Source: a virus. From it: a DNA stretch of 45,764 nucleotides. The stretch is taken from IMG/VR virus record IMGVR_UViG_3300009181_000128, positions 1 through 45,764 of that record; one strand, given 5' to 3'. The stretch's first letter is position 1. Every line of letters begins with the position of its first letter. Both the position numbers and the translations under genes were made by a program. Below the pieces are notes generated by a model. It did not search any database. It saw nothing but the letters and a program-made list of their open reading frames with translations, and was not told where the DNA came from. Positions 7,852 to 16,720 of the stretch are shown here, piece by piece.

Positions 7852-10800
7852 ATGGCAAATAAGGTAAAAATAGACTACTCGCAGTTTAGAGCGTCTGGAG
7901 TTTATACGTTGGAATTCGACGCATCGCAAAATGTAATTCTAACATCGCAAACTATTAGATTAGTGGTTGGATTCTCTAATAAGGGACCTTTCAATACACC
8001 GGTTTATATTCCTGACGTAACAACACTAATATCTATTTTTGGTGACGTAGACAGATCACTAGAAAATAAAGGTTCCTTCTTTCAGAGATCGATACTAACT
8101 TGTTTAAATACGGGTCCAGTTTTTGGATTGAATCTTTTAAGATTAAATGACGACGTGGAAACAGCAAATCCGGATAAGGTTACATACCAAGCATACTCTG
8201 TTGACACGGAGGAAGCTAATGGAGTTGTAACATCCAGACTTTACTCCTCTTATTACAATAAGGAGAGATTTTGGTTCGCAGATCCTAATTACTTCCTTGC
8301 AACACTAAGCGTTGCTGACCAGGGTAAATTATTCAGTCTTACTAATCTAGGTAAATCACCAATGAGTATCATCACTAGAAAATCTACGGATTCTTCTAAA
8401 CCTCTTAAAGGTTATGATATATTCGCAATAGATTGGTACGGAGCTAATAATGTACCTACTTTTATGCACCCTTATGATTACATCTCTGATTACTTTATTG
8501 ATGTAATTGCAGTTTATGGAAACTGGACAAATTATCAGGCATTAGCATTAGATCCCTATTATAGTAAATACTTTACTAACAATGGATTTATTAAAAGTAA
8601 GATAGACGCATTTCTTGCTGAACCTAATGTTTCCATAGTTACTTCTGTTACTGGATGTATCATACCTGACTTTGTTGATCTTAATGGAATTAATCAATAC
8701 ATACAAACACTAGTTAATAATAACACACCTTCAAGCGGTTTATTCTGTGCGATTGATGAAGTTGCATTCGATTCAATTTGTGATAACTCTTCTAAAATAG
8801 ATTTAGTTGGTAATCACTTAATTGATGAATTAACTGGCGATAGAGACCTTGTAACTCCTAGCATTAATTTCTTAAGTTATGATCAGGTACTAGTTGCTGA
8901 CTACTTATACTCACAAAATGTTGTTGGTGTAACTGGAGCAACTGGATTTGTTAGCCCTACCGGTGGTATAGTTTATGCTAAAGGTCTTAATGTTGGTACT
9001 CTTTTCACTCTTACTGAAGCCGGTGTTACTGCTGGTGTAATAAACAGTTCTTTTGCGGCTTACGATCCTACTGCATTTGATGGTGGATTACATTATCTTC
9101 AAACATTAGGTCTAACTGGTGCCACTGGTGGATTTAATAACGCTATACAAAAGGATTCTTTAAAAAGCTTCGTATCTGTTACATCATCTAACGATGAAAA
9201 ATTTATAATTGGTGTAGTTTCTGGATATACAGGAGGTTTAACGGGGGCATTAATAAACCAATTCTCTGAAGCTTCTCTTGTTAAATTAAAAGTTACCGGA
9301 ACTAAAGAAGTTTCGGGAGAATTAAGAATATTCTTTACACACCCTCTCGATAATGCTTTCTATAGGGGACAAGGTATATCTGTTGGTCCTACATATAACC
9401 TAACGTCATATAATACTGGTGCATCGGGAAGTAATAAACCATTCTATACGGATGCTTATCAATTTGGTAACTCCGATTATACCGATATTATTAGTGTAGC
9501 TACACCTGATGGTGTTACTGGACCTGGTGCTCCTCTGGGAGTTTCTAATGTTCTAGTTGGCTACAATGCTTCACCATTATTCCAGGATAATAAATATGCA
9601 GCAATTGCTGATGGTGATTTGGTTTGGAGAAACTCTGCAGGTACTAACCTTAGCTATCTGGGATTTGAAACCACTGTTGATAAGGATCAATTTGACCTGA
9701 CATATGTTAGAACATTCAGTAATGTTGACAGGGCCGAGGCGACTATAGTAAACGTTCCTGCATTTGGAGCTACTTATGCTTCTGATAATGTGGGGTTTCC
9801 TGTAAGCGCACAAGCATTTGATATAATTTCACAAGAAGGATCTATTAATCAATTCATAGATTGTACTAGAATAGACGTTACAACATTCTTGATAACTCAG
9901 GACAGCCTTGGTAATGTTCCTTTATCTGTCGGAGATTTGGTTGTTTCTACGGATCTTGATATATGTGAACCAGTAACGGGTAACAGACAAAGCAGATTAG
10001 CTAAGGTTACTTCGGTTGCTACCACGACAACTCTTGGAACATACAGGGTAAAAATAGCAAGACCAGCTCTCTATTACACTGCTGGCGTTGGACTTAGAAT
10101 TCAAAAATTCCTGTCGATATCCCAATTTACAAGATCTTTTGACTTCACATACTTAAGCGGATTCACAATGACTGACTCGCACAGACCTAACGGTAGTGAC
10201 GCTAGACTTAGTGATATACTTGATGTTATGTATGATACCAACATAGCTAAAACATTAGCCTCTAAGGACATTATATCATTCAGATACGTTGTGGATACGT
10301 TTTCTGGACAGATTTTACCTAACTCTAAATACCAACTTAGTAAGCTTGCTAAATTAAGACAACAAGCTCTTGCTATTATAAATGCTCCTTCAATGGCACA
10401 ATTTAGAGCTAGTACGGATCCTAGATTTACTGATGCTCCAACAGAACCAAATCCATATCCGAAATTAAATACTGCTTATATCGCAGATGGTGGTAATTTA
10501 TCTCTTAATCCTACATACACCTTTAGTTTACCTAGTGAAGATGATGGATCTAAATTCTGTGGTTTCTATTCCCCTTTTATTACAGTAAGGGAATCAAATA
10601 GAAATATAGATGTCCCACCAGCAGCATACGTTTCTAATAACTTCCTTAGAAAATTCGCAAACGGTGAACCTTATGCAATTATCGCAGGACAGAAAAGAGG
10701 GGTTATAAGCGGAGGAAATATCGTCGGTGTTGAATATGACTTTACTGATGAGGATAGAGGAAACTTAGAGCCTTTCGGTATAAATCCAATCATCAAGAGA

Positions 10801-11199
10801 AGAGGTATCGGAGTAATTATCTTCGGTAACCAAACTGCTTACCAACAAGTTAACTCAGCTTTCAACTTGGTCCATGTAAGGGATCTTTTAATCAGTATAG
10901 AAAGCGACGTACAAGAGATATTAGCTAACTACCTATTTGATTTTAATGACGATTCAATAAGACTTGAGATTAAAACATTAGTTGATAATTACCTTGATGG
11001 TGTTAGAGCAGGTGGTGGTGTTTATGCTTACCAAACTATAATGGATGCATCAAATAACACTCCGGCAATCATCGATATGAATATGGGTATAATTGACGTT
11101 ATAATTGAACCTGCTAGGGGAATTCAGAAATTCATTAATAGGGTTACTGTTACTAGAACTGGTGGAATCGCAGCTGGAGGATTCGTACAATTTGTATAA
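7852..11199 (+). CDS. 18: Contractile tail sheath protein (gp18-like)
   Basis: An 1115-residue sheath protein. The C-terminal third carries the conserved sheath fold, including GFYSPFITVRESNRNIDVPP, a segment around KRRGIGVIIFGNQTAY, and the C-terminal strand region ending GGIAAGGFVQFV that links neighbouring subunits. The N-terminal region starts with the usual sheath opening (SGVYTLEFDAS, VGFSNKGPFNTPVYI). T4 gp18 has 659 residues, so about 450 extra residues are inserted in the middle (roughly 330-760). These are rich in Gly and Thr with repeated TGATG-like motifs and probably form outer domains on the tail surface. It precedes the two tube genes, the standard T4 order 17-18-19. Confidence 0.93.
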   Translation: MANKVKIDYSQFRASGVYTLEFDASQNVILTSQTIRLVVGFSNKGPFNTPVYIPDVTTLISIFGDVDRSLENKGSFFQRSILTCLNTGPVFGLNLLRLNDDVETANPDKVTYQAYSVDTEEANGVVTSRLYSSYYNKERFWFADPNYFLATLSVADQGKLFSLTNLGKSPMSIITRKSTDSSKPLKGYDIFAIDWYGANNVPTFMHPYDYISDYFIDVIAVYGNWTNYQALALDPYYSKYFTNNGFIKSKIDAFLAEPNVSIVTSVTGCIIPDFVDLNGINQYIQTLVNNNTPSSGLFCAIDEVAFDSICDNSSKIDLVGNHLIDELTGDRDLVTPSINFLSYDQVLVADYLYSQNVVGVTGATGFVSPTGGIVYAKGLNVGTLFTLTEAGVTAGVINSSFAAYDPTAFDGGLHYLQTLGLTGATGGFNNAIQKDSLKSFVSVTSSNDEKFIIGVVSGYTGGLTGALINQFSEASLVKLKVTGTKEVSGELRIFFTHPLDNAFYRGQGISVGPTYNLTSYNTGASGSNKPFYTDAYQFGNSDYTDIISVATPDGVTGPGAPLGVSNVLVGYNASPLFQDNKYAAIADGDLVWRNSAGTNLSYLGFETTVDKDQFDLTYVRTFSNVDRAEATIVNVPAFGATYASDNVGFPVSAQAFDIISQEGSINQFIDCTRIDVTTFLITQDSLGNVPLSVGDLVVSTDLDICEPVTGNRQSRLAKVTSVATTTTLGTYRVKIARPALYYTAGVGLRIQKFLSISQFTRSFDFTYLSGFTMTDSHRPNGSDARLSDILDVMYDTNIAKTLASKDIISFRYVVDTFSGQILPNSKYQLSKLAKLRQQALAIINAPSMAQFRASTDPRFTDAPTEPNPYPKLNTAYIADGGNLSLNPTYTFSLPSEDDGSKFCGFYSPFITVRESNRNIDVPPAAYVSNNFLRKFANGEPYAIIAGQKRGVISGGNIVGVEYDFTDEDRGNLEPFGINPIIKRRGIGVIIFGNQTAYQQVNSAFNLVHVRDLLISIESDVQEILANYLFDFNDDSIRLEIKTLVDNYLDGVRAGGGVYAYQTIMDASNNTPAIIDMNMGIIDVIIEPARGIQKFINRVTVTRTGGIAAGGFVQFV

Positions 11200-11244: not shown

Positions 11245-11799
11245 ATGGCAGGATTATCACATTTTCAAAATTCACTATCAGGAATAAACAAGTTTGAACC
11301 TGTTTATTTAAACCAGTTTGAGGTTACTATTTTACCTCCTGCTGCTGTTGCTGGTGGTGAGATATTACTACAGCACGTTAATAAAGTGTCTGGCCTTTCT
11401 TTGGATAAAAACCCTGGTGTTATAGCACAAAAGTATAAATTTGCTAAAAGAAACTACGCTGGTGCTAAACCGGAGAACACCTATATGGACGTGAGTTTAA
11501 GTTTTACTGTCAATCTTAATGACGCTAATTCGATGTATGTACATAAAACATTAAGACAATGGTCAGATTTAATCTATAATCCCTTAACTGGTGCTATGGG
11601 TCTTAAAAACGATTATACAGGTACTATCGTAATATCAATCTTTAACAAGCAAGGTGATGTATACAGAAGAATAACTTGTAGAGATTGTTTTCCTACTAAA
11701 CCTATAACTGCTATGAATTTAAGCTACATGTCAACGGATCTATATAAAATTGATGACATGTCTTGGGCGGTTGATTACTGGGAAGATCTATTCTTATAA
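11245..11799 (+). CDS. 19: Tail tube protein, copy 1 (gp19-like)
   Basis: A 184-residue member of the T4 gp19 tail-tube family (T4 gp19 is 163 residues). Typical segments are YLNQFEVTILPP near the N-terminus, SFTVNLNDANSM, and LRQWSDLIYNPLTGAMGLK, ending VDYWEDLFL. The protein stacks as hexameric rings inside the sheath and forms the DNA channel. It lies 45 bases after the sheath gene and 14 bases before a clear paralogue. Copy 1 has a shorter loop after the first strand pair than copy 2. Which copy builds the main tube and which a cap, initiator or special ring cannot be told from sequence. Confidence 0.93.
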   Translation: MAGLSHFQNSLSGINKFEPVYLNQFEVTILPPAAVAGGEILLQHVNKVSGLSLDKNPGVIAQKYKFAKRNYAGAKPENTYMDVSLSFTVNLNDANSMYVHKTLRQWSDLIYNPLTGAMGLKNDYTGTIVISIFNKQGDVYRRITCRDCFPTKPITAMNLSYMSTDLYKIDDMSWAVDYWEDLFL

Positions 11800-11813
11800 A
11801 ATAAAGAACAAAA

Positions 11814-12389
11814 ATGGCAGGATTACCACATTTTACAAACTCTAAAGCAGCAATAAACTATTACGATCCGGTTTATCTGAACCAGTTCGAGGTGCTTATA
11901 AATCCACCATCAGGAATTGTTGATTCAGCTACCACATTTAAAGGTGAAAGTATATTAGCACAACAGGTTAAATCTATAACTGGATTGGCAGTAGATATTG
12001 CTCCTGCTCAGACAGTTAATCAGCAATATAAATTTGCTACCAGAAGATATGCTGGCGGTGAACCTTCTCAGAGTGATATGACACTTTCCATGGAATTCGA
12101 GGTTAACTTGAATGACGCTAATTCTATGTCTGTTTATAAAATTCTTAGACAATGGTCGGATTTAATCTATAATCCACTGACAGGAGCAATGGGTCTAAAA
12201 TCTGACTATGTCGGATCTATGTCTATATCAATATTTAATAAAAGAGGTGATGTCTTTAGAAGAATAAGAATACCTTCTTGCTTCTTGAGCGAGCCTATAA
12301 ATGCAATGGAACTTGATTATGAAACACCAGCTATATACAGCATAACTGCTAGTTGGGTTTGTGATTACTGGGAAGATCTATTCTTATAA
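11814..12389 (+). CDS. 19: Tail tube protein, copy 2 (gp19-like)
   Basis: A 191-residue tube paralogue, closely related to copy 1 over the whole length: YLNQFEVLINPP, FEVNLNDANSM, LRQWSDLIYNPLTGAMGLK and the same ending YWEDLFL. The last codons of both genes are almost identical at the DNA level (GATTACTGGGAAGATCT shared), pointing to tandem duplication or gene conversion. Differences concentrate in the loop after the first strands, with extra residues near 35-45, and in the last third. It ends 31 bases before the terminator stem, closing the sheath-tube operon. Confidence 0.92.
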   Translation: MAGLPHFTNSKAAINYYDPVYLNQFEVLINPPSGIVDSATTFKGESILAQQVKSITGLAVDIAPAQTVNQQYKFATRRYAGGEPSQSDMTLSMEFEVNLNDANSMSVYKILRQWSDLIYNPLTGAMGLKSDYVGSMSISIFNKRGDVFRRIRIPSCFLSEPINAMELDYETPAIYSITASWVCDYWEDLFL

Positions 12390-12479: not shown

Positions 12480-13541
12480 ATGGATAACATATCTCCGGAA
12501 GAAATTCTCAAAAGAAAAGAAATGATGGGTGGCATAGTATATGACGACCCATCCGATGTACAAACAAAGCCAGAGGCGAAGCCAGCTGAGGTTCAGCCAG
12601 TTTTAAGCGAACCTACGAAAAAAGATGTTGTCGAAAAAAATGTATACACGGACCAACCACCGGTTCCAAATAGTTTTGGCAAGGCACAATCCGTTTCTCC
12701 TGCATTTGATACAGGATGGAAAAATTTACCAGTTGATATATTACCCTCCAAGGGAGTATATTACCCAGAAGGAACAAAACTAGCCATAAGATCAGCAGAA
12801 GTTAGGGAAATTAGACACTTCTCCACTATCGATGATGATGATAGATTGGATATAGAGGATAAACTAAGTTACATTTTGGACAGATGTCTAAGAATGGATT
12901 TTCCTGATGAAGGCGTGGTATCATATCTTGATTTAAAACAAGAAGATAGATTCTTTATAATAATGGCAATAAGGGATTTAACTTTTGTTAGAGGTGAGAA
13001 TTCAATAATGCTTCAGGCAACAAAGAAATGCAACGAAACCCCTGATTGTCCGTTTAATAATGGTATTGAGTTAAGAACCGGTGTTTTAAGTTCATATGAG
13101 TTGGATGACAGAATAAATAAATACTATGATGTTGAAAGCAGAACTTTTCTATTTGATGTAAAAAGAATAGGAAAGAAAATTGAAATGTCAATACCAAGTA
13201 TAGGTGTTACAAAAGCAATCTCCAGATTTATTTCTGACATGAGTAGAAAGGGCACCGAGATTGATGACGGATTTATAAAAATTGCTCCTTTTATATTTAA
13301 TGAATGGAGGGATTTAACAAGCGATAGAATACTTACCCAAATGAGGGAAGCTGACTATTGGACCAAAGAGGAATATAGTTTATATTTTGAACTTTCAGAA
13401 AAGATCAGAATTGGCACTGAATTGGAAGTTAAACAAAAATGCCCTGTATGCGGTGACAAGGAGGTCACCGCTGCGATCAACTTTCCCAGCGGGTTCAGAT
13501 CTCTTTTCGTTATTTCAGATATCTTTGGAGAACTTCTTTGA
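12480..13541 (+). CDS. 26: gp26-like baseplate hub/tail assembly protein
   Basis: A 353-residue protein resembling the T4 gp26 family (T4_baseplate). After a low-complexity N-terminal 75 residues comes the core NLPVDILPSKGVYYPEGTK (about 82-100), then AEVREIRHFSTIDDDD. Two cysteine pairs, C184/C190 and C321/C324 (KCPVCGD), look like a zinc-binding site. In T4, gp26 is needed for hub assembly. Here the gene lies between the tail tube and a tape-measure-like gene, the place where long-tailed phages encode tail assembly chaperones. Its stop codon TGA (13539-13541) is part of a CTT TGA +1 frameshift site, so a longer 410-residue product probably also exists. Confidence 0.7.
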   Translation: MDNISPEEILKRKEMMGGIVYDDPSDVQTKPEAKPAEVQPVLSEPTKKDVVEKNVYTDQPPVPNSFGKAQSVSPAFDTGWKNLPVDILPSKGVYYPEGTKLAIRSAEVREIRHFSTIDDDDRLDIEDKLSYILDRCLRMDFPDEGVVSYLDLKQEDRFFIIMAIRDLTFVRGENSIMLQATKKCNETPDCPFNNGIELRTGVLSSYELDDRINKYYDVESRTFLFDVKRIGKKIEMSIPSIGVTKAISRFISDMSRKGTEIDDGFIKIAPFIFNEWRDLTSDRILTQMREADYWTKEEYSLYFELSEKIRIGTELEVKQKCPVCGDKEVTAAINFPSGFRSLFVISDIFGELL

Positions 13542-13713
13542 GATTAAATTTAGACTTTGGAAAGAGCATGGATTAGATCCCGTTTGGGTAGAATCCATAC
13601 CGTTTTATGAATATCAACTATGGCTAGACATGTTGAATGATTCTATAGATAAGGAGAATACAGAAAGACAGACAGAGGATGGGGTTAAACAATTATTTAA
13701 TCTGACTAAATAA
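13525..13713 (+). CDS. gp51-like extension frame, probably reached by +1 frameshift
   Basis: The protein-like part is EIKFRLWKEHGLDPVWVESI and what follows (PFYEYQLWLDMLND), 57 residues after the gp26-like stop, resembling the short gp51-like or chaperone-extension proteins of tailed phages. No ATG lies close: the only in-frame ATG is at 13387, deep inside the upstream gene, and the TTG at 13525 is the nearest alternative. Expression by +1 frameshifting at 13536-13541 would fuse it to the gp26-like protein (353 + 57 residues), like the G/GT chaperone pairs before tape-measure genes. It ends 24 bases before the tape-measure-like gene. Independent initiation at 13387 or 13525 remains possible. 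Confidence 0.6.
   Translation: MENFFEIKFRLWKEHGLDPVWVESIPFYEYQLWLDMLNDSIDKENTERQTEDGVKQLFNLTK
13527..13541 (+). other. Candidate programmed +1 ribosomal frameshift site (prfB-like)
   Basis: GGAG (13527-13530), five bases, then CTT TGA G. CTT TGA preceded by a purine-rich Shine-Dalgarno-like element is the arrangement of the release factor 2 (prfB) +1 frameshift. Skipping T13539 puts the ribosome in the frame that stays open to 13713. Inferred from sequence only. Confidence 0.55.
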
Positions 13714-13737: not shown

Positions 13738-15408
13738 ATGGCAACGGATCAGAAACTTATATCATCACTATTAGATCTCAGCAGAAATGTCGATAAGCTT
13801 TCTGGTGACATTAAAAAGAATACAACAACAACATCTGATCTTGTTGAAACCCAGACTAAAGCAGCCGATAATGCCAAAGATTTTGGAAAAATAGCTGAAG
13901 GAATAAAGGGACTTGATCTTGGAAGTTTAAAAGGAGAATTCTCACAATTAACAAAGGGTATAGAGGGATTAGATTTTCAGGGTTTATCGAAGGATCTAAA
14001 ATCTCTTGATTTTAAAGGATTAACTCAGAGTATAAAAGGATTAGATTTTAAAGATTTAACTCAGGGTATAAAAGGATTAGATTTTAAAGATCTAACTAAG
14101 GGTATAAAAGGATTAGATTTTAAAGATCTAACTAAGGGTATAAAAGGATTAGATTTTAAAGATCTAACTAAGGGTATAAAAGGATTAGATTTTAAATCTC
14201 TCGGGCAAGATCTTAAAAAACTTGACTTCAAGGATCTTGCCGGAAGTATAAAAGGTTTAGATCTGAAAGGAATATCTGGTGCAGCGAAGGGACTTGATAT
14301 CGGTGGGATTGCTAATGCAGTAAAAGGTGGAGGAATAAAGAACGTAGTTTCGGGATCTCTAGGAGGACTTGCAAAAGGATTTGGTAAAAAGCTACTTGGT
14401 GGATTCGAAGCGGGGGGAAAGGTTGAAAAAACAGGGAATTATCTTGTCGGAGAAAAGGGACCGGAAATCGTAAACCTCACCAAGGGATCTGCTGTTATTC
14501 CTAATGATATATTAAAGGAAAGACAGAATATATTAAAAAAATTAGGACCAAATGCTCCGAGCGAGAAAGAAATAGCTAATAGGAGAAATTATATTCTTTC
14601 AGCAGATACTGAATACTATAAGGATGAACCCGAATGGCTCGAGAAAGATGTAAATTCATATTTAGAAAGTCTTGATAAAAGCGCATTTTTTACTCCGGAT
14701 AATCTAAAAAGCATAACCGGGGGTGCACCACCTAAAAAGGAAGAACCTGTAGCTACTCCAATAGATAAATCTCAGGAGTCTAAGTCTGAATCTAAAGTTA
14801 AGGAAAAAAAGGACGGCTTATTTTCTAAAATATTTGGAAAGAAGAAGGACAAGGCTGCTCCCGAAATGGACGAAAAGGATAAAGGACCTTCGTTATTAGA
14901 TAGGGGTAAAGACTTGCTTAAAAATGTTGATAAGGAATCATTAATTAAAGGGGGTTCGGATCTTCTAAAGAATCCCGCGGATCTCCTAAATAACCCCGCG
15001 GATCTTCTGAAAAGCGCTGGTGGAATTGGAATGCAAGCAATGCTTAAAAAGAAGGAAGATATTAAGCCGGGTGAAATAAAAAATACGGTTAATAAATTAT
15101 CAAAGCTTCCTGAACCAAAACGGGCTGCTAAGAATACCACAGCTTCCGCACCAACTGCAGAACCAGCTGATAAGGCATCTCCTGTTACTAGTCAAACTGA
15201 GACTAATGGAGGGGAAGTTAAGACTTCATCCGCATCAGCAACATCTACTTCTACTTCTACTGCTGCTTCGGGTGGATCGGAAGGTATGGGTAAAGATGAT
15301 GCTAACGAGATGAAATCGATACTTATGAGAATAGCATCTTTGCTAGAAGGTCCGCTGAGTGTATCATCCATCGATGCACCATATAGACCGGATTCCAGAA
15401 GGGTATAA
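13738..15408 (+). CDS. Tape-measure-like tail protein with 12-residue repeats
   Basis: A 556-residue protein. Residues 45-180 are a helical repeat region with a 12-residue unit (LTKGIKGLDFKD and variants). Around residues 220-260 is FEAGGKVEKTGNYLVGEKG followed by PEIVNLTKGSAVIPND, a motif common near the ends of tail tape-measure proteins. The rest is charged and low-complexity (Lys, Glu, Pro, Ser, Thr). Length is close to T4 gp29 (590), which sets tail length. The position after tube and chaperone-like genes is the canonical tape-measure place. I cannot exclude another tail or baseplate role. Confidence 0.55.
   Translation: MATDQKLISSLLDLSRNVDKLSGDIKKNTTTTSDLVETQTKAADNAKDFGKIAEGIKGLDLGSLKGEFSQLTKGIEGLDFQGLSKDLKSLDFKGLTQSIKGLDFKDLTQGIKGLDFKDLTKGIKGLDFKDLTKGIKGLDFKDLTKGIKGLDFKSLGQDLKKLDFKDLAGSIKGLDLKGISGAAKGLDIGGIANAVKGGGIKNVVSGSLGGLAKGFGKKLLGGFEAGGKVEKTGNYLVGEKGPEIVNLTKGSAVIPNDILKERQNILKKLGPNAPSEKEIANRRNYILSADTEYYKDEPEWLEKDVNSYLESLDKSAFFTPDNLKSITGGAPPKKEEPVATPIDKSQESKSESKVKEKKDGLFSKIFGKKKDKAAPEMDEKDKGPSLLDRGKDLLKNVDKESLIKGGSDLLKNPADLLNNPADLLKSAGGIGMQAMLKKKEDIKPGEIKNTVNKLSKLPEPKRAAKNTTASAPTAEPADKASPVTSQTETNGGEVKTSSASATSTSTSTAASGGSEGMGKDDANEMKSILMRIASLLEGPLSVSSIDAPYRPDSRRV
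14020..14199 (+). repeat. Five tandem 36-bp repeats in the tape-measure-like gene
   Basis: Five consecutive in-frame 36-base units (14020, 14056, 14092, 14128, 14164) encode LT(Q/K)(S/G)IKGLDFK(D/S). The last three are nearly identical at the DNA level, so they arose recently. Older, diverged units flank them on both sides (QGLSKDLKSLDFKG, KSLGQDLKKLDFKD). Confidence 0.9.
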
Positions 15409-16087: not shown

Positions 16088-16720
16088 ATGCAACAAAAAG
16101 AAAAAAACATCCAGAGATTGGCGGAAGATTTTATATTATTCAGGGATGATAAAAGCTTCAAGTTTTTATTTGAAAGACTAAGACCGGGGGTACTTAATCA
16201 TTGCTTTCTTATTTTGAAGGACCAGGATCTTGCAGAAGATTCATTCCTTAACACTATGGCCAAAATATGGCTAAAGATAGATCAATATAATGGGGAAAGG
16301 GGAAATTTCTCCACCTGGTGCTATAATATAGCTAGGAATGAATCCCTGCTACTCATGAAATCAAGGAAGAGATATTATAGCCACAGCGATACTGAGCTTG
16401 AATATTTCTCATCCAAAAATACGATAGGTGATATAGGAGGAGAATATTTAATGGAGGACGACCCGTCATATGCATTTTTTAACGAGGGATCAAATCTTGA
16501 TGATGTCTACGAATCGGTTCTTGATGAAATTAGAGATTTACCTGAACTATATCGAGACATTATGATCGATAGGGAGATTAACAACATGAAATATAAGGAC
16601 ATTGCTGAAAAATATGGTATCAAAAAGAGATCCATCGCAACCAGAATAAGAAGAGCCAGAGGTAAGATAAGAAAAAAAATAGACGGAAACATTACAATGA
16701 ATCTTGGATATAAAAAATAA
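16088..16720 (+). CDS. ECF-like sigma-70 family RNA polymerase sigma factor
   Basis: A 210-residue sigma factor with only regions 2 and 4. Region 2 (about 25-95) contains DLAEDSFLNTMAKIW and RGNFSTWCYNIARNE, the usual polymerase-binding and -10 reading part. Region 4 (about 151-198) has LPELYRDIMI, then the helix-turn-helix KYKDIAEKYGIKKRSIATRI and RRARGKIRKK. An acidic linker of about 50 residues separates them. ECF factors normally direct RNA polymerase to a small promoter set. T4 has no such protein, and this genome also encodes a gp55-like late sigma at 23395, so this one may run a middle class. It lies between dCMP deaminase and a small membrane protein gene. Confidence 0.85.
   Translation: MQQKEKNIQRLAEDFILFRDDKSFKFLFERLRPGVLNHCFLILKDQDLAEDSFLNTMAKIWLKIDQYNGERGNFSTWCYNIARNESLLLMKSRKRYYSHSDTELEYFSSKNTIGDIGGEYLMEDDPSYAFFNEGSNLDDVYESVLDEIRDLPELYRDIMIDREINNMKYKDIAEKYGIKKRSIATRIRRARGKIRKKIDGNITMNLGYKK

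What the first reader, a model, noticed from the sequence alone, without database searches (positions are those of the whole stretch)
12480..13713. prfB-like +1 frameshift joins a gp26-like protein to a gp51-like extension
The gp26-like gene ends in GGAG-AACTT-CTT-TGA-G. CTT TGA with an upstream Shine-Dalgarno-like element is the layout of the release factor 2 frameshift. Skipping one T gives 57 more residues with protein-like sequence that has no good start of its own. The locus lies between tail tube and a tape-measure-like gene, exactly where other long-tailed phages make two tail chaperones by frameshifting. In T4 the counterparts are separate genes. A +1 site of the prfB type here would be unusual, more so because Bacteroidota ribosomes seldom use Shine-Dalgarno pairing for initiation.
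Basis: partly seen in the sequence, partly recalled or inferred. Interest (0 to 1): 0.8.

Follow-up and report, generated by a model that had tools for sequence, protein, structure and literature searches.

The report
Conserved +1 frameshift in tail-chaperone gene

Summary
The overlap is real and the +1 frameshift is strongly supported by comparative evidence, but the proposed site is wrong. CTT-TGA with its nearby GGAG is not conserved: relatives have GGA or CGA in place of TGA, AGAG in place of GGAG, or an unrelated TAA. The conserved site lies 54 nt upstream: TTT-CCC-N at 13482-13487 (codons 335-336).

TTT CCC is invariant in two clades whose gp26-like proteins are only about 31% identical (41/41 and 28/28 sequences). 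Synonymous variation collapses from there to the stop. In 15/41 sequences the +1 frame is closed by a stop 5 nt upstream of TTT. Of 12 named-phage loci (11 distinct lineages), 11 have an in-phase UUU-C in the overlap. A covarying hairpin with GGAGG in its loop sits just upstream (13450-13471).

Product: 353 aa (gp26-like) plus, after the shift, 410 aa (335 + 75). The 75-aa tail belongs to the gp51 family.

T4 gp26 and gp51 share the whole gp26 domain; gp51 alone carries the tail. Published work already names these the T4 tail-assembly chaperones. Cyanophage-type relatives show a -1 site in 75/75 sequences. The window is a +1 variant of a known chaperone-frameshift system. No expression data exist here.

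The parts
12480..13541 (+). 0-frame gene: gp26-like / short tail-assembly chaperone (353 aa, ends at TGA 13539-13541)
   Evidence: ORF; weak PF12322 match (E 0.0073, below cut-off), phrog_36717 E 2.7e-21; AF2 model, mean pLDDT 79, matches PAU, pT24 and PTm1 proteins and T4-type baseplate-hub proteins in BFVD
13482..13488 (+). shift site UUU_CCC_A (codons 335-336 plus next base); ribosome moves +1 here
   Evidence: TTT CCC invariant in 41/41 and 28/28 deduplicated sequences of two clades; in-phase UUU_C in 11 of 12 named-phage loci
13486..13713 (+). +1-frame extension, gp51-like, 75 codons plus stop (PAGSDLFSLFQISLENFFEIKFR...); fused product 410 aa
   Evidence: open in all complete loci, third-position-dominated substitutions; phrog_634; HHalign to the cyanophage extension E 3.6e-10; helical model
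13488..13538 (+). dual-coding overlap (0-frame SGFRSLFVISDIFGELL, +1 frame AGSDLFSLFQISLENFF)
   Evidence: synonymous variation obs/exp 0.013 in the lowest 9-codon window against a null minimum of 0.17; variants biased to those silent in one frame
13450..13471 (+). upstream hairpin GCGGUGAC-[AAGGAG]-GUCACCGC, probable stimulator, 10 nt before UUU
   Evidence: 8 bp, 93.4% of cells paired, 3 pairs with compensatory changes, 0/500 shuffles reach the covariation score; more stable than synonymous shuffles in many relatives
13460..13465 (+). Shine-Dalgarno-like GGAGGU in the hairpin loop and first 3'-arm bases, 16 nt before UUU
   Evidence: GAG codon invariant in both clades; strongest anti-SD complementarity within the 120 nt upstream of the site
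   Evidence: not conserved
11245..12389 (+). context: two tandem tail-tube genes upstream
   Evidence: phrog_32623, phrog_3629
13738..15408 (+). context: tape-measure-like gene downstream
   Evidence: phrog_8892 tape measure, E 6.7e-7

Best explanation
The locus is a programmed +1 ribosomal frameshift that makes a short (353 aa) and a long (410 aa) tail-assembly chaperone from one gene. Ribosomes read the gp26-like frame to UUU-CCC at 13482-13487. A minority slip forward one base there and go on into the gp51-like extension; the rest stop at the TGA 18 codons later. Supported by comparative evidence: the shift direction, the site, dual coding, and an upstream covarying hairpin with GGAGG in its loop. 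Inferred: (a) slippage of P-site tRNA-Phe from UUU to UUC while the A-site codon (CCC here; CCU, CAA or CGA in relatives) is slow, with slippage of tRNA-Pro on CCC-N as the alternative; (b) that the hairpin and/or the GGAGGU stimulates the shift from behind the ribosome; (c) that the two forms act as major and minor subunits of a chaperone on the tape measure protein, as lambda gpG/gpGT do.
For: TTT CCC invariant in 41/41 and 28/28 sequences; in each clade the only Phe, Pro and Glu columns with an invariant codon are the same five, all in the last 26-28 codons. Synonymous variation collapses from the site to the stop: lowest 9-codon window obs/exp 0.013 and 0.098, null minima 0.17. In 15/41 sequences a +1-frame stop lies 5 nt before TTT, and 12 of 41 have no ATG/GTG/TTG in +1 between that stop and 20 codons past the site. 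Extension open in all complete loci, third-position-rich change. In-phase UUU_C in 11/12 named-phage loci; where CCC is lost (CCU, CAA, CGA) UUU_C stays. phrog_634 matches the fused product across the junction. Hairpin covariation. T4 gp26 and gp51 share PF12322 end to end, gp51 alone has the tail. A 5' hairpin stimulates +1 frameshifting in a 70S system (PMC6321510). CCC is 13 of 159 Pro codons in the 12 window genes counted.
Against: No expression, mass-spectrometry or reporter data. One named lineage (L088) lacks UUU_C and has CCC_A; in MA9V and PTm1 the UUU_C candidate is offset from the aligned site, where a chance match is plausible. The hairpin starts 10 nt before UUU, whereas tested +1-stimulating hairpins abut the E site, and the GGAGGU is 16 nt away, too far for a prfB-like push, so the stimulator's mode is unexplained. 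The hairpin is weak or absent in several distant lineages. The window protein alone scores below the PF12322 cut-off.
Confidence: 0.92

Rival explanations
1. prfB-type +1 frameshift at CUU_UGA (13536-13541) with the GGAG at 13527-13530.
For: CTT TGA is present in the window and most close relatives (42/48 unique sequences have TGA); CUU_U is a proven +1 site in prfB.
Against: GGA or CGA replaces TGA in 6/48; GGAG is AGAG in about half; absent from clade 2 and other lineages. The +1 frame is already constrained 17 codons upstream. CTT TGA is also explained as +1-frame TTT GAN (F-D/E).
Confidence: 0.04
2. The gp51-like part is a separate protein started inside the overlap, with no frameshift.
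For: Small downstream ORFs are annotated in relatives (MA9V1_007, PAU_94, PTm1 ORF-023) and a GGAGG lies upstream.
Against: No conserved +1-frame start: 12/41 sequences have no ATG/GTG/TTG between the last +1 stop and 20 codons past the site. The conserved +1 sequence starts 5' of the annotated starts, at FPxGSDLFSLFQ. TTT CCC invariance would have no cause.
Confidence: 0.03
3. Same +1 shift, but the slipping tRNA is Pro on CCC_N (as in Listeria phage PSA) rather than Phe on UUU_C. (A variant of the best explanation, not exclusive of it.)
For: CCC invariant in both main clades, PAU and pT24; L088 keeps CCC_A without UUU; PSA precedent (PMC5009743).
Against: L098 and L101 have TTT CCT G, Lak phages and L081 TTT CAA G, MaF61 TTT CGA G; there only UUU_C allows cognate re-pairing. 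In the window both routes give the same protein.
Confidence: 0.35
4. Sequencing error or decayed gene.
For: An overlap of two frames can arise from an indel error.
Against: The same two-frame layout occurs in independently assembled contigs and complete phage genomes, with purifying selection in both frames.
Confidence: 0.005

Closest known systems
T4 gp26 / gp51 (tail-assembly chaperones of T4-like phages; Vladimirov, Gautam and Davidson 2022, title seen only as a citation)
   Same: short gp26-type domain protein plus long form with the same C-terminal extension family; both called hub-assembly chaperones in a T4 review (PMC3004832)
   Different: T4 makes the two from separate genes on opposite strands; here one gene and a +1 shift
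Cyanophage / pelagiphage gp26-gp51
   Same: gp26 followed by the gp51-type tail in a shifted overlapping frame; homologous extension
   Different: -1 phase with U_UUU_UUY in 75/75 unique sequences and an SD-like element close to the site
Lambda gpG / gpGT type tail-assembly chaperone frameshift
   Same: position between tail tube and tape measure; major short and minor extended product
   Different: lambda shifts -1; here +1 with a different protein family
Listeria phage PSA +1 sites (CCC_U)
   Same: phage structural genes, +1 shift at a rare CCC codon
   Different: PSA shifts in capsid and tail-shaft genes, next to a stop or before a pseudoknot; here UUU precedes CCC, far from the stop, with a 5' hairpin
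Influenza A PA-X +1 site (UUU_CGU; heptamer from own knowledge, +1 shift)
   Same: UUU_C slip to UUC before a slow sense codon
   Different: eukaryotic host, RNA virus, unrelated protein
HSTV-2 haloarchaeal myovirus tail chaperone
   Same: reported as very likely +1
   Different: archaeal host; site not compared here
prfB CUU_UGA
   Same: +1 direction
   Different: site not conserved here; no stop codon needed at the slip

Membership tests
tail-assembly chaperone short/long (TAC-N/TAC-NC) pair | gene lies between tail tube and tape measure | tested here: met
   tail tubes 11245-12389, tape-measure-like 13738-15408; in annotated relatives the gene follows the tail sheath
tail-assembly chaperone short/long (TAC-N/TAC-NC) pair | short form plus C-terminally extended form of the same protein | tested here: met
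   comparative evidence only: dual coding and conserved extension
tail-assembly chaperone short/long (TAC-N/TAC-NC) pair | long form is the minor product; both absent from virions; bind tape measure | not testable with these tools
   needs proteomics and binding assays
T4 gp26 / PF12322 | Pfam score above curated cut-off | tested here: inconclusive
   window gene 16.4 bits against 24.5; homologues L090, L082 and L081 are above the cut-off
T4 gp51-type extension (phrog_634) | sequence match of the extension | tested here: met
   E 0.0014-0.0041; linked through cyanophage extensions (E 3.6e-10) to the T4 gp51 C-terminus (E 3.5e-6); direct comparison with T4 not significant
prfB-type +1 frameshift | conserved CUU_UGA with an adjacent SD | tested here: not met
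-1 X_XXY_YYZ chaperone frameshift | extension in the -1 frame with a heptamer | tested here: not met
   extension is in +1; -1 heptamers found only in cyanophage-type relatives
UUU_C-type +1 frameshift | conserved in-phase UUU_C at the start of dual coding | tested here: met
   two clades plus 11/12 named-phage loci
UUU_C-type +1 frameshift | measured shift at that codon | not testable with these tools
   needs mass spectrometry or a reporter

The most novel reading that the evidence does not exclude
A widespread, previously undescribed class of bacterial +1 frameshift: an internal sense-codon UUU_C site driven by a 5' refolding hairpin that shows a GGAGG loop, used by giant and T4-related phages of Bacteroidota whose hosts hardly use Shine-Dalgarno pairing. 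The same chaperone pair is made elsewhere by -1 shifting or by two genes.
Probability: 0.45. Interest if true: 0.8.

Novelty: new variant of a known kind. Interest (0 to 1): 0.66.

Why it matters
It corrects how these genes should be annotated: the 40-60 aa 'hypothetical proteins' after the gp26-like gene in PAU, PTm1, MA9V and related genomes are the ends of a frameshifted chaperone. It adds a +1 solution next to T4's two genes and the cyanophage -1 shift for one chaperone pair. It also offers an explanation for the 2010 note that cyanophage gp51 lacks about 200 N-terminal residues (PMC3037559): gp26 supplies them. A natural bacterial +1 site with an upstream hairpin would be a test bed for forward frameshifting without a stop codon, in a phylum where SD pairing is little used.

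Tried and rejected
CTT TGA as the site: rejected by conservation. Internal initiation: no conserved +1 start. Downstream stimulatory structure: window:13491-13570 folds no better than shuffles (z +1.2). A 9-bp stem enclosing the site (AAGGAGGUC/GAUCUCUUU) appears in the window's fold, but by inspection TCT->TCC relatives break it without compensation, so I did not adopt it. Rfam: only sub-threshold hits. PDB fold search: no significant match; HK97 tail chaperone 2OB9 only at E 6. The mixed-depth profile A1 was too divergent for a collection scan. A PF12322 search of the window's own record found nothing above threshold and its controls were silent, so it says nothing. The T4 chaperone paper (Vladimirov 2022) is not held, so I cannot say whether it covers the cyanophage -1 site in full or any +1 case. 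The targeted stem test stopped with a script error after 23 of 31 loci, so it covers no Lak, MA9V, pT24, L088, PTm1, PAU or MaF61 locus.

Full report
OBSERVATION. The ORF 12480-13541 (353 aa) and a +1-frame ORF to 13713 are present as described. Flanking genes are a tail sheath (7852-11199), two tail-tube genes (11245-12389) and a tape-measure-like gene (13738-15408).

RELATIVES. A scan of viral contigs gave 80 homologues of the gp26-like protein. In every locus complete enough to judge, the +1 extension is open to a similar length. The CTT TGA is not constant: GGA (L053-L057, L072-L073) or CGA (L064-L065) replaces TGA, and the upstream GGAG is AGAG in about half. Named relatives come from Prevotella Lak phages, uncultured huge phages, Chryseobacterium MA9V, Tenacibaculum pT24 and PTm1, 'Sphingomonas' phage PAU and Flavobacterium MaF61. 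Nearly all named hosts are Bacteroidota (I recall that the PAU host was reclassified to Sphingobacterium), so a Bacteroidota host for the window is inferred, not shown.

WHERE THE SHIFT IS. Codon-by-codon comparison shows TTT CCC (codons 335-336, 13482-13487) invariant, with almost no synonymous change from there to the stop. A synonymous-site scan on 41 deduplicated sequences gave obs/exp 0.013 in the lowest 9-codon window; the smallest value in 2000 column shuffles was 0.17. An independent clade (28 deduplicated relatives of LR756502, gp26-like protein about 31% identical to the window's) gave the same picture, with 0.098 against a null minimum of 0.168. In each clade the only Phe, Pro and Glu columns with an invariant codon are the same five, GAG, TTT, CCC, TTC and TTT, all in the last 26-28 codons. 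Variants in the overlap are biased to those silent in one frame: clade 1 has 8 of 30 possible +1-silent, 6 of 34 0-silent, and 5 of 79 that change both; clade 2 is alike. In 15/41 sequences the +1 frame is stopped 5 nt before TTT, so it must be entered between there and the 0-frame stop, and in 12/41 no standard start codon is available between that stop and 20 codons past the site.

WHICH CODON SLIPS. In the window, slipping on UUU (to UUC) and slipping on CCC (to CCA) give the same protein...AINF-P-AGSDLF... L098 and L101 have TTT CCT G, L081 and the Lak phages TTT CAA G, MaF61 TTT CGA G. Eleven of 12 named-phage loci (L082 and L092 being close relatives) have an in-phase UUU_C in the overlap, ten of them 57-75 nt before the stop. 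MA9V's is at 36 nt, and L088 has only CCC_A. I therefore favour P-site tRNA-Phe slippage before a slow A-site codon (inference). CCC is 13 of 159 Pro codons in the 12 window genes counted.

STIMULATORS. A hairpin, GCGGUGAC-[AAGGAG]-GUCACCGC, lies at 13450-13471, 10 nt before UUU. On 17 distinct sequences in the same register, 93.4% of cells pair, three pairs show changes on both sides, and 0 of 500 shuffles reach the covariation score. Sliding controls are far lower except +3, which partly re-pairs. In 17 of 37 representatives a 42-nt fold is more stable than synonymous resampling at p<0.05. The GGAGGU in the loop and first 3'-arm bases is the strongest anti-SD match within the 120 nt upstream of the site in both clades, at 12-17 nt from UUU; in the -1 cyanophage set the peak is about 5-8 nt from the heptamer. 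A 5' hairpin that abuts the E site stimulates +1 shifting on 70S ribosomes (PMC6321510), but the distance differs here, so the mode of action is open. No downstream structure was found.

WHAT THE PROTEINS ARE. The fused product matches phrog_634 (gp51 family) at residues 328-399, spanning the junction. The extension aligns with cyanophage extensions (HHalign E 3.6e-10), and those with the T4 gp51 C-terminus (E 3.5e-6); the direct comparison with T4 is not significant. T4 gp26 and gp51 both match PF12322 end to end, and gp51 alone has the tail. In cyanophage- and pelagiphage-type relatives the extension is in the -1 frame after U_UUU_UUY in 75/75 unique sequences, which would explain the 2010 note that cyanophage gp51 lacks about 200 N-terminal residues (PMC3037559). 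The AlphaFold model of the gp26-like protein (mean pLDDT 79) matches PAU, pT24 and PTm1 proteins and then T4-type baseplate-hub proteins. The extension is predicted helical at moderate confidence.

WHAT IS KNOWN. That gp26/gp51 are T4 tail-assembly chaperones is published (Vladimirov et al. 2022; seen only as a citation in PMC12846349; that its chaperone genes are gp26 and gp51 is my reading from the title and the T4 review). The citing paper states that poly-T -1 signals in T4-like chaperone genes are known and reports a -1 case in Vandenendeviridae. So the system is known in kind; the +1 UUU_C site with a 5' hairpin in this lineage is what I could not find described. +1 chaperone shifting is reported as very likely for HSTV-2, and +1 at CCC for Listeria phage PSA (PMC5009743).

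LIMITS. All evidence is comparative. Efficiency, the exact slip codon, the stimulator's role and the chaperone function are inferred.

Noticed in passing
L168, L169, L171-L250 (3' end of gp26): Cyanophage- and pelagiphage-type relatives show a -1 heptamer U_UUU_UUY and a conserved -1 extension in 75/75 unique sequences; in L168 and L169 the annotated 'baseplate hub assembly catalyst' (42-45 aa) is only the end of it.
   Followed up: yes
L095:3803-5229: T4 gp26 and gp51, on opposite strands, both carry a full PF12322 domain; gp51 has the extra C-terminal extension.
   Followed up: yes
L086:3384-3560, L087:3306-3527, L089:3396-3518, L090:3396-3533, L091:3336-3506: Small annotated ORFs after the gp26-like gene appear to be 3' pieces of the frameshift extension.
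   Followed up: partly
L083 (Lak-B5), +1 extension: The +1 extension contains one in-frame TAG, which fits TAG read as an amino acid in this phage (Lak-C1 has no stop there).
   Followed up: partly
L084, after TTT CCC: The extension carries an extra segment before the SVFSVFTVSWEN motif, so the overlap is less compact than in other lineages.
   Followed up: no
window 11245-11799 and 11814-12389: Two tandem, related tail-tube genes (both phrog_32623).
   Followed up: no
window 7852-11199: Unusually long tail sheath protein, 1115 aa.
   Followed up: no
window 13738-15408: Tape-measure-like protein with repeats of the type GLDFKDLTKGIK.
   Followed up: no
window 16088-16720: Sigma-70 region 2 and 4 protein (PF04542, PF08281), a phage-encoded sigma factor.
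   Followed up: no
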